Assembly (NCBI RefSeq): GCF_964059125.1
Contig: NZ_OZ060395.1
Coordinates: forward strand, 447,680 to 511,679
Source of the DNA: Buchnera aphidicola (Eriosoma lanigerum)
GTDB lineage: Bacteria; Pseudomonadota; Gammaproteobacteria; Enterobacterales; Enterobacteriaceae
Direction: 5' to 3'
DNA: 64,000 nt
In this document: in pieces, positions 11,472 through 48,191 of the stretch
Numbering within the stretch: the first letter of the stretch is position 1
Layout: each line of letters opens with the position of its first letter
Position numbers and translations under genes: made by a program
Notes under the pieces: generated by a model
What the model was told of the DNA's origin: nothing
The model's input: the letters and a program-made list of their open reading frames with translations, nothing else
Databases searched by the model: none

Positions 11472-12064
11472 TTATGTAAACCAAAAATTAATTTTTTGTT
11501 TTAATTTATCTATGCCAATACTTTTATGAGAAGAAAATACTATATAATCTATCTTGATATAAAATTTAGATAAATATTCTTTAATTACCTGTATCTTTTT
11601 TTTTTTTTATCTTGATTTAGTTTATCTGATTTAGTTAATATAATACATATTGAAATTTTTTTTTGAATTAAGATATGTAAAAATTTTTTATCTAACTCTT
11701 TTATTACATGTCTAATATCCATACAAACAAATACACCAATTAAACAAATACTATGTAATAAATATTGATTTAATAAAAGATTTAAATTCATTTTATTTTC
11801 TTTTGATACTTTTGCATATCCATAACCAGGTAAATCAATTAAACGATAACCAGTTGATATTTCAAAAATATTTATCATCTGAGTTCTACCAGGAGTTTTA
11901 CTAATTTTAGATAAACCTCTTTTTTCTGTTAACATATTAATCACACTAGATTTACCTACATTTGAATATCCAATAAAAGCAATTTCTTTTCCTACAGTTA
12001 ACAATTGCCCTACATTAACGATACTAGTTAAAAAAAAAGTATCTTTATAATAATTTAAAAACAT
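11472..12064 (-). CDS. engB: Ribosome-biogenesis GTPase EngB (YihA), frameshifted in a 13-base poly(A) tract
   Basis: An essential GTPase of 50S subunit assembly. Read from ATG 12064 (strong AAGGGG ribosome site) the frame holds G1 GYSNVGKSS, G2 GRTQM, G3 DLPGYG and G4 TKSDKL, then stops early at 11585 (159 aa). Just before that stop the coding strand has 13 consecutive A (11596-11608). One extra A, or two fewer, reopens the frame as KIQVIKEYLSKF ... SSHKSIGIDKLKQK and ends in WFT at 11472. This restores the G5 SSHK element and a length near 197 aa (E. coli 210). The sequence past the tract is still EngB-like, so the gene is probably functional through slippage, or the tract length is a sequencing error. 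Confidence 0.85.
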
Positions 12065-12527: not shown

Positions 12528-14342
12528 ATGAATCAAAACATAAGAAATATAGCAATTATTGCGCACGTTGATCATGGAAAAACTACTTTAATTGATAAAT
12601 TATTACAACAATCAGGAACTTTTGATATACATGAAGTACAAACAGAAAGAATCATGGATTCTAACGATTTAGAAAAAGAAAGAGGTATTACTATACTATC
12701 AAAAAATACTGCCATAAAATGGAACGGATATCATATTAATATTGTTGATACCCCTGGACATGCTGATTTTGGTGGAGAAGTTGAGCGTATCTTATCTATG
12801 GTAGATTCTGTATTACTAATTGTAGATGCTTTAGAAGGACCTATGCCACAAACTAGATTTGTTACAGAAAAAGCATTTAATTATGGAATGAATCCTATAG
12901 TCGTAATTAATAAAATTGATAGAATAAATGCTCGCCCTGAATGGGTTATAGATCAGATTTTTGATTTATTTATTAATTTAAACGCTAATGATGATCAAAT
13001 TAATTTTCCTATTATTTATACTTCAGCATTAACTGGAATTTCTGGAACTAATCTGAAAAATATGAAGACTGATATGACAGCTTTATATGAATCAATTATT
13101 AAGTATGTACCAGCCCCAAAAAAAAATTATAATAAAAAACTACAAATGCAAATTTCTCAATTAGACTATAATAACTACTTAGGAGTTATCGGAATCGGAA
13201 GAATTAAACAAGGTACAGCAAAATCAAATCAAAACATAATTATTACTAATAATAATGGAAAAAAACAAATAGGGAAAATTAATCAAATTTTAACCTATAT
13301 TGGTTTAAAACGTATTCCTACTAATATAGCTATTTCAGGATCTATTGTAGCTATTACTGGACTAAATAATATTAATATATCAGATACAATTTGTGATCCT
13401 GAATACATTCAACCACTACCCAAATTAAATATAGATGAACCTACGATTAAAATGTTTTTCTCTGTTAACAGTTCTCCTTTTGCAGGAAAAGAAGGAAAAT
13501 ATGTTACTTCTCGTCAGATTGGAGAAAGATTAAAAAAAGAACTAATTCATAATGTTGCTTTACATATGGAAGAAACTAATAATTCTAATACATTTTGTGT
13601 TTCTGGAAGAGGAGAATTACATTTATCAATTTTAATTGAGAACATGAGAAGAGAAGGATTTGAATTAGAAGTATCACGTCCAAAAGTCATTTTTCGAGAA
13701 GCAAATTCTATTAAACAAGAGCCATTTGAACATGTTATTTTAGATACCGAAATAAAATATCAAGGCATAATTATGAACTTTCTAGGAAATAGAAAAGGAG
13801 AAATGATAAATATAACACCTATGAATAATAATCGAATACGTTTAGAATATATACTTTCCAGTCGTGCTTTAATAGGTTTTCGTTCTGAATATATTAGTAT
13901 GACTTCTGGAACCGGATTATTTAATTCTTCATTTAGTCATTATGGAAATATACAAAATTCTAATATAGGACAACGTAGAAATGGAGTACTTATATCAAAT
14001 AGTACAGGTATGGCCGTAGCTTTCGCTTTGTATAATTTACAAGATAGAGGAAAATTATTTTTAGGACATGGATCTAATGTATACGAAGGTCAAATTATTG
14101 GTGTACATAATCGATCTAATGATTTAACAGTTAACTGTTTAACTGGAAAAAAATTAACTAATATGAGAGCTTCAGGAACTGATGAATCTATTTCATTAAC
14201 AACAGCTATTAATATGAATTTAGAAGATGCTTTAGGATTTATTAATGATGATGAATTAATAGAAATAACTCCTAATAATATTCGATTAAGAAAACAATAT
14301 TTAACTGAAAATGAAAGAAAAAAAAATTTCAAAAAAAAATAA
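12528..14342 (+). CDS. typA: Ribosome-associated translational GTPase TypA/BipA
   Basis: 604 aa, E. coli 607. An EF-G-like GTPase that binds the 70S ribosome and helps 50S assembly and stress adaptation. The G domain spans about 1-200 with [10 protein letters not shown] (G1), ERGITI (G2), DTPGHADFG (G3) and NKIDR (G4). It is followed by EF-Tu-like domain II, EF-G-like domains III and V, and the BipA-specific C-terminal domain containing [11 protein letters not shown]. The start has AGGATAAG upstream. The C-terminus ends in a short lysine run. A strong hairpin follows 66 nt after the stop. Confidence 0.96.
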
Positions 14343-14608: not shown

Positions 14609-15238
14609 TTATTTTTTTATATTAATTAACTGATGAATTAAGTTATAATACACATTTTTCTGTAAATGTGTACTTAATTGTTTTGCTCGAATAATTAATT
14701 CTAAATCAGATACTGCTACATTAAATTTATCATTAATAATTAAATAATCATAATCTAAATAATGTTTCATTTCTGATACTGCTTGTGCCATTCTTTTAGA
14801 AATAACAAGATGAGTATCTTGACCTCTTTTCTTTAATCGTTGATATAATTCTAATTTAGATGGAGGTAGTATAAAAATACTACAAGTTTGTAAGACTGTT
14901 CTTCGAATTTGTTCCGCGCCTTGCCAATCAATATCTAAAAATACGTTATCACCATTTGATAATAATTTATTAATAACTTTTTTAGAAGTACCATAATAAT
15001 GATTAAATACTTTAGCATACTCTAAAAAATCTTGATCTTGTATCATTTTACGAAACTGTCTCTTAGAAACAAAATAATAATGTTTACCATGATGCTCACC
15101 TGGACGAATAGTTCTAGTAGTATGAGAAATTGAAATCTTCATATTACATAATTGTTTGGTATTTAATAATTCTGTAATTAAACTTGATTTCCCAGTTCCA
15201 CTAGGAGCGGAAACAATAAAAAGCATACCTTTAGTCAT
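14609..15238 (-). CDS. gmk: Guanylate kinase
   Basis: 209 aa, E. coli 207. It phosphorylates GMP to GDP with ATP. Near the N-terminus is the P-loop APSGTGKSSL. The GMP-binding part carries SHTTRTIRPGE and the HYYFVS stretch. DIDWQGAEQ contains the conserved Asp pair. The lid and C-terminal helices are complete. No clear ribosome-binding site precedes the ATG. The gene stands alone on its strand between typA and ygfZ. In E. coli it neighbours rpoZ and spoT, and neither is seen here. Confidence 0.95.
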   Translation of the reverse strand: MTKGMLFIVSAPSGTGKSSLITELLNTKQLCNMKISISHTTRTIRPGEHHGKHYYFVSKRQFRKMIQDQDFLEYAKVFNHYYGTSKKVINKLLSNGDNVFLDIDWQGAEQIRRTVLQTCSIFILPPSKLELYQRLKKRGQDTHLVISKRMAQAVSEMKHYLDYDYLIINDKFNVAVSDLELIIRAKQLSTHLQKNVYYNLIHQLINIKK

Positions 15239-15417
15239 AATTATTAAAAAATTAAAAAAAAAAAAAGAAATAATTCAAAATAACAAAAAGTGAATAACAA
15301 TTAAATTAAAAATTTAATAATATTAAATAAATAATACATAAATTACACAAATACAAACAAAAAAAAAACAAAAAATATAAGATACACTGAAATTAAAATA
15401 ACATTACTACTATATAA

Positions 15418-37536: not shown

Positions 37537-37727
37537 TCATGTTCATAAAAGGTGACTAATATATAAATATATATATATATATCGTTATTTATATATAATA
37601 AATAAAAATTTATCATTAATATATTAGTCATGATATATGTAATTAATTACATATACATTCATTATTTATGAATACATAAATAATACTATTTGTACTTATT
37701 TTACTAACAATTATTAAAAATAAAAAA

Positions 37728-40700
37728 ATGTTAATCATATATCAATCTAATAATTTTGAAACATTATTAAAACAAGCATGCCAAATTATAAAAAACAAAC
37801 CATTATCAAATCCAATGAAAAATGAATTATTCATAGTTAACAATACAACAATAGAACAATGGATAAAAATTTTTATTGCTAAATATATAGGTATATACGC
37901 TAACATTAAATTTGATCAATGTGAAAATTTTATATGGAAAATTTTTACTTATATACTACCAAAATACACAAATCAATATAGTTTTACACATTTACATATA
38001 TTATGGAAAATATTATCTATACCTAAACTGAACAATTATTTAATGAATCATAACAGTAATACAAAAAACGAAAAGTTTCAATTTGCGTTTACAATGTCTA
38101 AAATTTTTAATCAGTATTTAATATATCGACCAGAATGGATCGAATTATGGGATAATAATACTAATATTCCGAACTTATCTAAAGAACAAAAATGGCAAAA
38201 AAAACTATGGAGATCCATCTTATACTATTCAAAAAAAAATAATCAAAATATACATCATTTCTCTAATATAAAAAAAAAATTATACAAAAAATTACAAATA
38301 ATACAAGTATTATAAAACAAATCTTACCTATTAGAATATTTATTTTTAATACCATTTATATTCCTAATACTTATATTGAAATACTCAATCATATTAGTAA
38401 AATATGTAAAATATATATATTAAACATAAAAAATACTATATCTACTAATAAGTCTATATTAAACATATCAAAAAATCATCATCCATTATTATCATATAGT
38501 CAAAATATTATATTAAATCATATTCAATACTTATATTCTTTTCAACATAAAAATAAAACCATATTTTCAAAAATTCAAGGAAATAATTTATTACAAAAAA
38601 TACAAAAAAAAATTTTATTTTATTCAACAAACATAAATATCAAACAAAAACAATGCAATAATAAATATGGTGAAATTTTTTATTCTACAGATAATTCTAT
38701 TAGTATACATATATGTAATTCAATACGACAAGAAATAGAAATATTACACTATAATTTACTAAATATATTTCATAAAAATAATACAATTAATCCTAAAGAT
38801 ATCATTGTATTATCGACAAATATTAGTATATATATACCATTTATTCGATCTGTTTTTAATTCTGTACCAAAAAAATATTTTATACCATTTTCTATATCTA
38901 ATTCATCAACTATAATCAATAATTCAATACTACAGATATTGAATAAATTATTTAATATAATAAATATTGAATGTAACCAAGAAGAAATTTTGTCACTCTT
39001 ATCATTTCCAATTTTATTAGAACGATTTAATATTAATGAAATTGAATTTAAGATTCTAAAACAATGGATCCAAAAAGCAAATATTAAATTAGGAATCAAT
39101 AAACAACATTTATATGAATTATTTAATATTAAAACTAATTATAATAATTGGAATTTTGGAATTAACAATATGTTATTATCATATTCTGTTAATGAAAATA
39201 ATTTTATTTGGAATAATAACGTATCTTATAATGAATTTCATCATGAACATGCTGAACTAATAGCAAAAATACAAGAATTTATCATATTATTAAATAAATG
39301 GAAAAAAATATTTTTATATTCTAATAATCTTATAATATGGAAAACAAAATTCAAAAAAATGATAAAAGATTTTTTTTCAACAAAATATTTACATCATGAA
39401 TTTATATTATTTTTACAAGATACTTGGAATAAGATCATCAATGATGGTATCAAATCAAAATTTAAAAAAAAAATCAATATAAAAATATTAAAAAATATAT
39501 TTCTAAAACAAGTTCAAAAAAGAAACTATCACTCTAATTTATGTATAGGTTCAATTAATTTTTGTAATATTGATACATTAGAAAATATTTCTTTTAAAAT
39601 GATATATTTACTAGGAATAAACGAAAATATATACCCTAGAAAAACAAACGAAAAATTTTTCAATTTAATTACACATAAATTAAAAATAGGAGATATTAAT
39701 TATAGAATGTATGATTTTCATATGTTTTATAATTGTTTATTTAATGCAAAACAATATTTTTATATTAGTTATATTAATAACCATAGTAGCGATAGTAATA
39801 CAATTAATTCATCCATAGTAATCGAAATTCTACAAAAATATATAATCAACAATTTTAAAATAATGACACATGATATAAATTTAATACAATCTGAAACAAC
39901 AATAGAAAACCAAAAAAAAATAATTAATCATTTATATCATTTTCATCCTATAACTATATATAATAAAAATAATAAATTATTTTGTTGTAAAAATTATAAA
40001 AAACTAGATCATGATGTCATAATAGAAAAAAAATATAACCAAATTAACAATATTAATAATAATTCCTGTAATAATATATATACTACAATTAATGTACAAG
40101 ATTTAATTAAATTTTGGAAACATCCTATACGTTTTTTCTTTAATCATACATTAAAAGTAAAAATACCTTATCTTCAAAAAAACGAATCTGAATTAAACTA
40201 TTTTTACATTAATCCAATTCACATTTATCAAATGAAATCAGAAATATTAGATTCTTTGATTTATAAAAAAAATATTAATTATTTACATATATTATATAGT
40301 CAATCAGGAATATTACCATACGGAAATTTTGGAAAACATATTTGGGAACAAATGATAATAGAAATGCATGATTTATATAAAAAAATATATCTATTACGAG
40401 ATAAACCTAATAGAAAAAAAATATGTATAACAATTAATTCATATCAATTACAAAATTATCAATTATCAGAAATACATAAAATAGGATTAATACGATGGAA
40501 ACCTAATATCATTTATATTCCAGATATAATATCTCTTTGGATTGAACATTTAATATATTGTTATTTACAAGGAAATGGGATGAGCTATGTTTTAGGAACA
40601 AAAAACAGTTGTTCATTTTCTACAGTATCAGTTCAAACTGCAAAAAAATACTTAAATATGTATATTACAGGCTATATAAAAGGAATATCTCAACCTTTAC

Positions 40701-40972
40701 TATTAACTAAATCAGGAATAACATGGTTGTTATCTCAATATAATAATAATAATAATATTATATTTAATAATAATCTAGATTATCAAAAAAGTAATAAACA
40801 ATTTTTTAACATATGGAATGGAAATACTATCAATGATGGAGAAAAGCAAGACTTTTATATTAATAAAATCATACCTAATTTAGATCAATCCATATTTCTA
40901 AAATTATGTAATACAGCAAAAAAATGGTTTTTACCAATTTTACATTATTATAAAAAAAATAATTTACAATAA
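37728..40972 (+). CDS. recC: RecBCD subunit RecC, frameshifted at a poly(A) tract
   Basis: The first frame (37728-38315, 195 aa) matches the RecC N-terminus and stops after IIQVL. The remainder, about 880 codons including ILPIRIFIFNTIYIP and SIHICNSIRQEIEILH, continues in another frame to 40972. That frame is open back to 38267. The switch must fall between 38267 and 38313, where a run of 10 A lies (38270-38279). One extra A joins the frames into about 1,081 aa, E. coli 1,122. The second frame is not a separate gene: it has no ribosome site and its similarity begins upstream of any start. RecC normally stabilises RecBCD and recognises Chi. Its function here depends on slippage, unless the read is wrong. 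Confidence 0.85.

Positions 40973-48114: not shown

Positions 48115-48191
<77 letters not shown>

What the first reader, a model, noticed from the sequence alone, without database searches (positions are those of the whole stretch)
11585..11620. engB is interrupted only at a 13-base poly(A) tract
The EngB frame breaks exactly at 13 A (coding strand, 11596-11608). The missing C-terminus, including the G5 element and the terminal WFT, continues in another frame to 11472. EngB is essential in E. coli, and the downstream part still reads as EngB, so selection is apparently acting on it. Rescue by RNA polymerase slippage on poly(A) has been reported for Buchnera and Blochmannia, and this is a strong candidate. 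It would make a fraction of transcripts, not all, encode the full GTPase.
Basis: partly seen in the sequence, partly recalled or inferred. Interest (0 to 1): 0.72.

Follow-up and report, generated by a model that had tools for sequence, protein, structure and literature searches.

The report
Poly(A) frame break in Buchnera engB
In an aphid symbiont's shrunken genome, the gene for a ribosome-assembly GTPase is split between two reading registers only at a run of 13 A's, as several other genes there are too; slippage during gene expression probably still makes some whole protein, a phenomenon already known in these bacteria.

Summary
In detail: 13 A's (coding strand, 11608-11596) end the EngB frame at 11585, and the rest of EngB continues in another register to the stop at 11472. 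The genome is a Buchnera close to that of Eriosoma grossulariae. Both parts remain EngB-like against the sister (64% and 63% identity, equal pN/pS), but the test on 39-43 downstream codons has little power.

It is not unique. In 464 kb of this genome, five other genes (holB, tilS, fabD, truA, recC) break at coding-strand A-runs of 10-12. The sister's engB breaks at a different A-run and is deposited as a full 201-residue protein. holB breaks at the same place in both species, yet both parts evolve under constraint, the best sign that such breaks are tolerated here.

Rescue by RNA polymerase slippage, already described for Buchnera and Blochmannia, is the best explanation; a minus-one ribosome slip would serve equally. 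Undecided: recent inactivation (engB is gone from the same locus in four related small genomes) and a one-base undercall of the run. A published transcript survey of another Buchnera saw no frame-restoring errors.

A new member of a known kind.

The parts
11585..12064 (-). engB (yihA/ysxC), first piece, 159 aa to an out-of-frame stop; holds G1 (GYSNVGKS), G3 (DLPG) and G4 (TKSD) motifs (motif names recalled)
   Evidence: ORF; TIGR03598 183.3 bits, profile 3-150/186; 64% identical to the sister over 133 codons
11596..11608 (-). 13-A tract where the frame breaks
   Evidence: read directly; longest coding-strand A-run in homology-supported coding of the 464 kb examined
11472..11606 (-). engB, last piece in another register, with a G5-like SSHK (motif name recalled) and terminal NFWFT
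   Evidence: 63% identical to the sister over 43 codons
8684..11401 (+). polA, converging neighbour; context polA - engB - typA
   Evidence: ORF, named by eye; its protein finds a match in 15 of 16 relatives searched
12528..14342 (+). typA/bipA, diverging neighbour
   Evidence: ORF, named by eye from sequence
38270..38279 (+). A10 tract breaking recC (pieces 37680-38312 and 38267-40969): a second gene of the same kind in the window
   Evidence: both pieces match TIGR01450 recC

Best explanation
A poly(A) frame break of the kind known from insect endosymbionts. Shown: the run of 13 A puts the two parts of an otherwise sound engB in different registers, and five other genes in the part of this genome examined are broken in the same way. 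Inferred: RNA polymerase slips on the run, a fraction of mRNAs carries a changed number of A's, and that fraction is translated into whole EngB; the 159-residue product of the rest lacks the G5 region and the last helix and is probably inactive. The register is the one that a single added A restores, and single added bases in A/T runs are the commonest transcription insertion reported in Buchnera (PMC5574713). How large the fraction is, and whether the ribosome also contributes, is not shown.
For: Tract and frames. Equal constraint on both parts versus the sister: pN/pS 0.39 over 133 and 0.39 over 43 codons. Same pattern in 5 other genes of 464 kb: holB A12, tilS A11, fabD, truA, recC A10. Sister G001 (480 kb): engB A11 at another site, dnaA A11, ksgA A10, fabG A9 and holB A12. 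holB is broken at the same site and in the same direction in both species and open (326-348 residues) in 9 of 12 genomes searched, G002 among them, while its two parts have pN/pS 0.53 (81 codons) and 0.52 (239 codons): if inherited, it has stayed functional while broken. In the 464 kb, no break found by homology in a frame of 100 residues or more lay away from an A-run, one rRNA-like row aside. 16 events were found in 6 of 11 genomes scanned; 14 of 16 have the register that one added base would restore (p = 0.004 against equal odds). The sister's EngB is deposited as 201 residues, which no single frame of its DNA gives (P0002). Literature: 1-18 homopolymeric frameshifts per genome in eight Buchnera (PMC3164680 Table 1, passage); corrected frames in 12-50% of transcripts at long poly(A) runs in earlier cases (PMC5009743, passage).
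Against: No transcript, read or protein data for this gene. A transcriptome survey of Buchnera found no transcription error that restored a frame (PMC5574713, passage), though its longest run was 11 and it studied another Buchnera. The engB downstream test is too weak to exclude neutrality on this branch. engB has been lost from the same locus in four relatives. The tract is not shared: the sister and G002 are in frame here. The excess of 'one base short' registers is also what undercalled homopolymers or deletion-biased replication would give, and two of the 16 events (G112, G094) lie near the same place of one gene and may not be independent.
Confidence: 0.55

Rival explanations
1. Assembly artefact: the real genome has a tract length that keeps engB whole, and the assembly lost a base in a long homopolymer.
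For: 14 of 16 breaks are one base short modulo 3, the direction in which long-read base callers and PCR stutter tend to err (recalled). Breaks are about 6 of 71 coding A-runs of 10 or more and 0 of 140 runs of 9 in G000.
Against: Runs of 14-22 A or T stand in the same assembly. holB is broken at the same site and in the other direction in two different genomes. Similar counts are published for Buchnera, in two of those genomes with indel polymorphisms called only if seen in both Illumina and 454 data (PMC3164680, passages).
Confidence: 0.2
2. Recent inactivation: a replication indel has just broken engB, nothing rescues it, and it is on the way to loss.
For: engB is absent between polA and typA in G054, G183, G090 and G203; losses reported in Blochmannia (PMC12779916, passage). 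Two of three genomes of this genus have a broken engB, at different runs, as expected if constraint is relaxed. Downstream neutrality on this branch is not excluded. In four other Buchnera genomes 42 of 69 pseudogenes were restricted to one genome and due to homopolymeric runs (PMC3164680, passage).
Against: No second defect seen in either species' engB; in the 464 kb no break in a frame of 100 residues or more away from an A-run was found, so a tail of older pseudogenes is missing at this sensitivity; the shared holB break shows no decay.
Confidence: 0.17
3. Ribosomal rescue: a minus-one slip of the ribosome on A_AAA_AAA within the tract joins the registers, with or without RNA polymerase slippage.
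For: The downstream frame lies at minus one, and the tract offers repeated A_AAA_AAA heptamers in the upstream frame; such heptamers are known slip sites (recalled).
Against: No stable downstream structure: -4.5 kcal/mol, z 0.36, 127 of 200 shuffles fold at least as well; no Shine-Dalgarno-like stimulator seen by eye upstream.
Confidence: 0.08

Closest known systems
Transcriptional slippage at poly(A) tracts in Buchnera and Blochmannia (Tamas et al. 2008, PMC2567471; Wernegreen et al. 2010, PMC2877537; neither is held; known here through passages of PMC5009743, PMC3017870 and PMC3164680)
   Same: AT-rich insect endosymbiont, gene sound but for one break at a long A-run, other such genes in the genome, and here a break (holB) shared between species without decay
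   Different: No cDNA evidence here; another gene (engB) and a longer run (13) than the 9-12 mentioned in the passages seen
Homopolymeric frameshifts of Blochmannia vafer (dnaX, dnaG, pth and others; PMC3017870, passages)
   Same: Information-processing genes broken in A/T runs, and independent breaks at different sites of one gene (ytfM there, engB here)
   Different: Other host lineage; engB is not named in the passages seen
Programmed minus-one ribosomal frameshifting (dnaX type, recalled)
   Same: A-rich slip sequence, minus-one register
   Different: No stimulatory hairpin or Shine-Dalgarno element found; no use for a second product known

Membership tests
EngB/YihA/YsxC GTPase | match to TIGR03598 above its cut-off | tested here: met
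   183.3 bits against 124.45 for the first piece alone
EngB/YihA/YsxC GTPase | complete G domain including the G5 region in one frame | tested here: not met
   the profile match stops at position 150 of 186; the rest lies in another register
slippage-rescued poly(A) frame break | single break, at a long coding-strand A-run, gene otherwise open | tested here: met
slippage-rescued poly(A) frame break | both parts under purifying selection | tested here: inconclusive
   pN/pS 0.39/0.39 but the bootstrap bound is uninformative; for holB 0.53/0.52
slippage-rescued poly(A) frame break | mixed A-run lengths in mRNA | not testable with these tools
   no transcript data
slippage-rescued poly(A) frame break | same break kept in related genomes (seen in some published cases, not all) | tested here: not met
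   sister G001 has an A9 in frame at about this place and breaks at an A11 near codon 20; G002 is whole; the exact tract occurs in G000 only, 1 of 3 genomes of the genus
programmed minus-one ribosomal frameshift | slip heptamer plus stimulatory structure | tested here: not met
   heptamer present, structure not above shuffles

The most novel reading that the evidence does not exclude
In Buchnera, A-run frame breaks in needed genes are kept mainly in the register that the polymerase's own commonest insertion error (one added A) restores, so that genes such as engB, holB, tilS, fabD and, in the sister, dnaA live permanently on transcriptional noise, and their tract lengths act as crude dosage settings that drift between species. 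(holB itself is an exception to the direction rule.)
Probability: 0.15. Interest if true: 0.6.

Novelty: new member of a known kind. Interest (0 to 1): 0.35.

Why it matters
If rescue is real, gene catalogues of reduced genomes that drop frame-broken genes undercount needed functions, and the genus offers natural replicates: engB broken at two different A-runs in two species and holB broken at one shared run. That makes it testable whether slippage-dependent genes are stable states or first steps to loss. The direction excess (14 of 16) is a prediction that can be tested on accurately sequenced genomes.

Tried and rejected
Chance open frame downstream: rejected by homology. T-runs as an equally breaking class: only 7 coding-strand T-runs of 10 or more were counted in homology-supported coding of G000, none linked to a counted break, so no contrast can be drawn (p = 1). 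Age of the engB break from the sister comparison: underpowered. A stimulatory RNA structure: none. RNA families: the only gathering-level hit in the window is a tRNA at 48118-48191. A close strain of the same species: the protein search lists the window's own cluster (2 member sequences, 1 contig), then 66% identity. apbE (A10 near its start) was left out of the tally because its N-terminus is poorly conserved. Of 14 frame-change candidates at A-runs I kept six (engB, holB, tilS, recC, fabD, truA); apbE was left aside and seven were judged by eye ordinary gene ends or starts, or unassigned frames. In one search, of 9 rows for G000 I counted 5 genes and dropped one rRNA-like row and three frames under 100 residues; of 12 rows for G001 I counted 4 and dropped one rRNA-like row and seven frames under 100 residues, none of them followed up. 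tilS and truA come and did not pass the filters. In one search the 4 rows of other genomes are 3 events (G112, G094, G032); the gene of the first two was not identified. In one search, of 6 G195 rows I counted 3 at A-runs (A9, A10, A11) and dropped two rRNA-like rows and one near a T-run. holB was counted once; the homology scan missed it because both species are broken; it comes.

Full report
What is there. On the minus strand, engB starts at 12064 and runs open to a TAA at 11585 (159 aa); the run of 13 A lies at 11608-11596 and the rest of EngB follows in another register to the stop at 11472. The first piece is EngB by TIGR03598 at 183.3 bits, covering profile 3-150 of 186. In the whole-genome search the same family hits the place with one internal TAA. 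The last 44 residues are too short to score alone but match the sister species' EngB C-terminus at 63% identity, and the solved EngB 1pui (E. coli, recalled) aligns to residues 4-199 of the sister's 201-residue protein.

Which genome. The window lies in a 626,868-base chromosome of a 637,734-base, 3-contig assembly. One of the two congeners held (G001, contig 606,948) is Buchnera aphidicola of Eriosoma grossulariae by the name and contig length of P0002. G002 has 530,976 bases, close to the Tetraneura akinire symbiont (530,863), and the window's chromosome is close in size to that of E. harunire (627,315; PMC12243488, read whole). So an Eriosoma-type host is likely; the exact host is not shown. 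G046 (615,980 bases) equals the published chromosome size of the Baizongia pistaciae symbiont (PMC3164680, passage).

Relatives' engB. I looked at 45 engB loci from G000 and small-genome relatives (one, G125, is masked in part). Besides G000, the sister G001 is broken at an A11 near codon 20, a different place; at about the G000 site it has an A9 in frame. G212 is broken at an A11; G284's frame ends just after an A10, its other half unchecked. G002 is whole, and G165 carries an A14 in frame in nearly the same lysine-rich stretch after the G4 motif. The sister's protein is deposited as 201 residues, which its DNA gives in no single frame: its annotators evidently bridged the break. In 28 of 295 family genomes no match reached E 1e-15. 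I followed 16 of the 20 such genomes listed there: none reached the TIGR03598 cut-off, and in 4 of them (G054, G183, G090, G203) the polA match is followed directly by typA with 55, 58, 244 and 290 bases between the matches. So engB has been lost from this locus in lineages with the same gene order.

Is it alone? In 464 kb of this genome I compared A-runs of 9 or more with open frames on both sides and searched for genes whose homology jumps frame. Six genes break, each at a coding-strand A-run: engB A13, holB A12, tilS A11, fabD A10, truA A10 and recC A10 (identities). Homology-supported coding holds 71 A-runs of 10 or more and 140 of 9; 6 and 0 of them are counted as breaks (p = 0.001). Only 7 coding-strand T-runs of 10 or more were counted, none a break, which says nothing (p = 1). 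In the sister (480 kb) dnaA A11, ksgA A10, fabG A9, engB A11 and holB A12 break. Eight further genomes gave three events in 880 kb and G195 three in 400 kb. Over all, 14 of 16 events, found in 6 of 11 genomes scanned, have the register that one added base restores (p = 0.004); the exceptions are holB and one in G032.

holB is the best argument for function. It is broken at the same site, in the same direction, in both species (A12 in each). Of 12 genomes searched, 9 have it open over 326-348 residues; in G094 the match starts late in a 270-residue frame, not followed up. Its two parts have pN/pS 0.53 and 0.52. If the break was inherited, an unrescued gene would have drifted towards 1. Two independent hits cannot be excluded.

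engB itself. pN/pS is 0.39 on both sides of the tract. Leaving out the tract, a bootstrap for the share of this branch spent without constraint gives 0.48 with a 95% range of -0.26 to 1.41: no decision.

Mechanism. The needed register is plus one base in RNA or minus one for the ribosome. In Buchnera 151 of 157 transcription insertions fell in homopolymers, all of these in A or T runs, and frequencies of single-base insertions rise exponentially with run length up to the 11 observed (PMC5574713, passages and one section). The same paper found no frame-restoring case, which counts against general rescue. The 2016 review gives 12-50% corrected transcripts for the cases studied earlier (PMC5009743, passage). 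There is no stimulatory RNA structure. I therefore favour polymerase slippage, with ribosome slippage as a possible contributor.

What remains open. Two rivals are serious. An undercalled run would look just like this, and the one-base-short excess fits it; against it stand runs of 14-22 in the same assembly and holB. Recent inactivation fits the loss of engB elsewhere. No tool here can count A's in reads or cDNA.

Novelty. Homopolymer frame breaks with possible slippage rescue are described for Buchnera and Blochmannia (PMC3164680, PMC3017870, PMC4389277, passages). Searches for engB with Buchnera (10 papers listed, passages of one read) and for frameshift, homopolymer and slippage with Buchnera (12 listed, passages of six read) showed me no paper that reports this gene as a case; the library holds only part of the literature and the two founding papers are not in it.

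Noticed in passing
window 38270-38279 (recC 37680-40969): recC is broken at an A10 run in the same way; the sister's recC is open there.
   Followed up: partly
G000 chromosome 378636 (L064:18636-18647) and L209:4080-4091 (G001): holB (DNA polymerase III delta') is broken at a shared A12 site in two species with both parts constrained; open in 9 of 12 genomes searched.
   Followed up: partly
L191 about 14052 (G001): dnaA, the replication initiator, is broken at an A11 run in the Eriosoma grossulariae symbiont.
   Followed up: no
L283, L282, L276, L273 (polA) with L287-L290 (typA): In four small genomes the polA match covers only about its first 300 residues (in three with stops inside) and engB is gone between polA and typA.
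   Followed up: no
L095 (G165), engB: An A14 run stays in frame in engB at nearly the same place, so its transcripts might slip out of frame.
   Followed up: no
window about 21750 (genome 469429), - strand: A short frame with a T10 on this strand shows a frame jump against the sister; may be a shadow of the other strand.
   Followed up: no
window 15254-15266, + strand: A second 13-base run in the window, A on the + strand, lies just upstream of the start of the - strand ORF 14609-15238.
   Followed up: no
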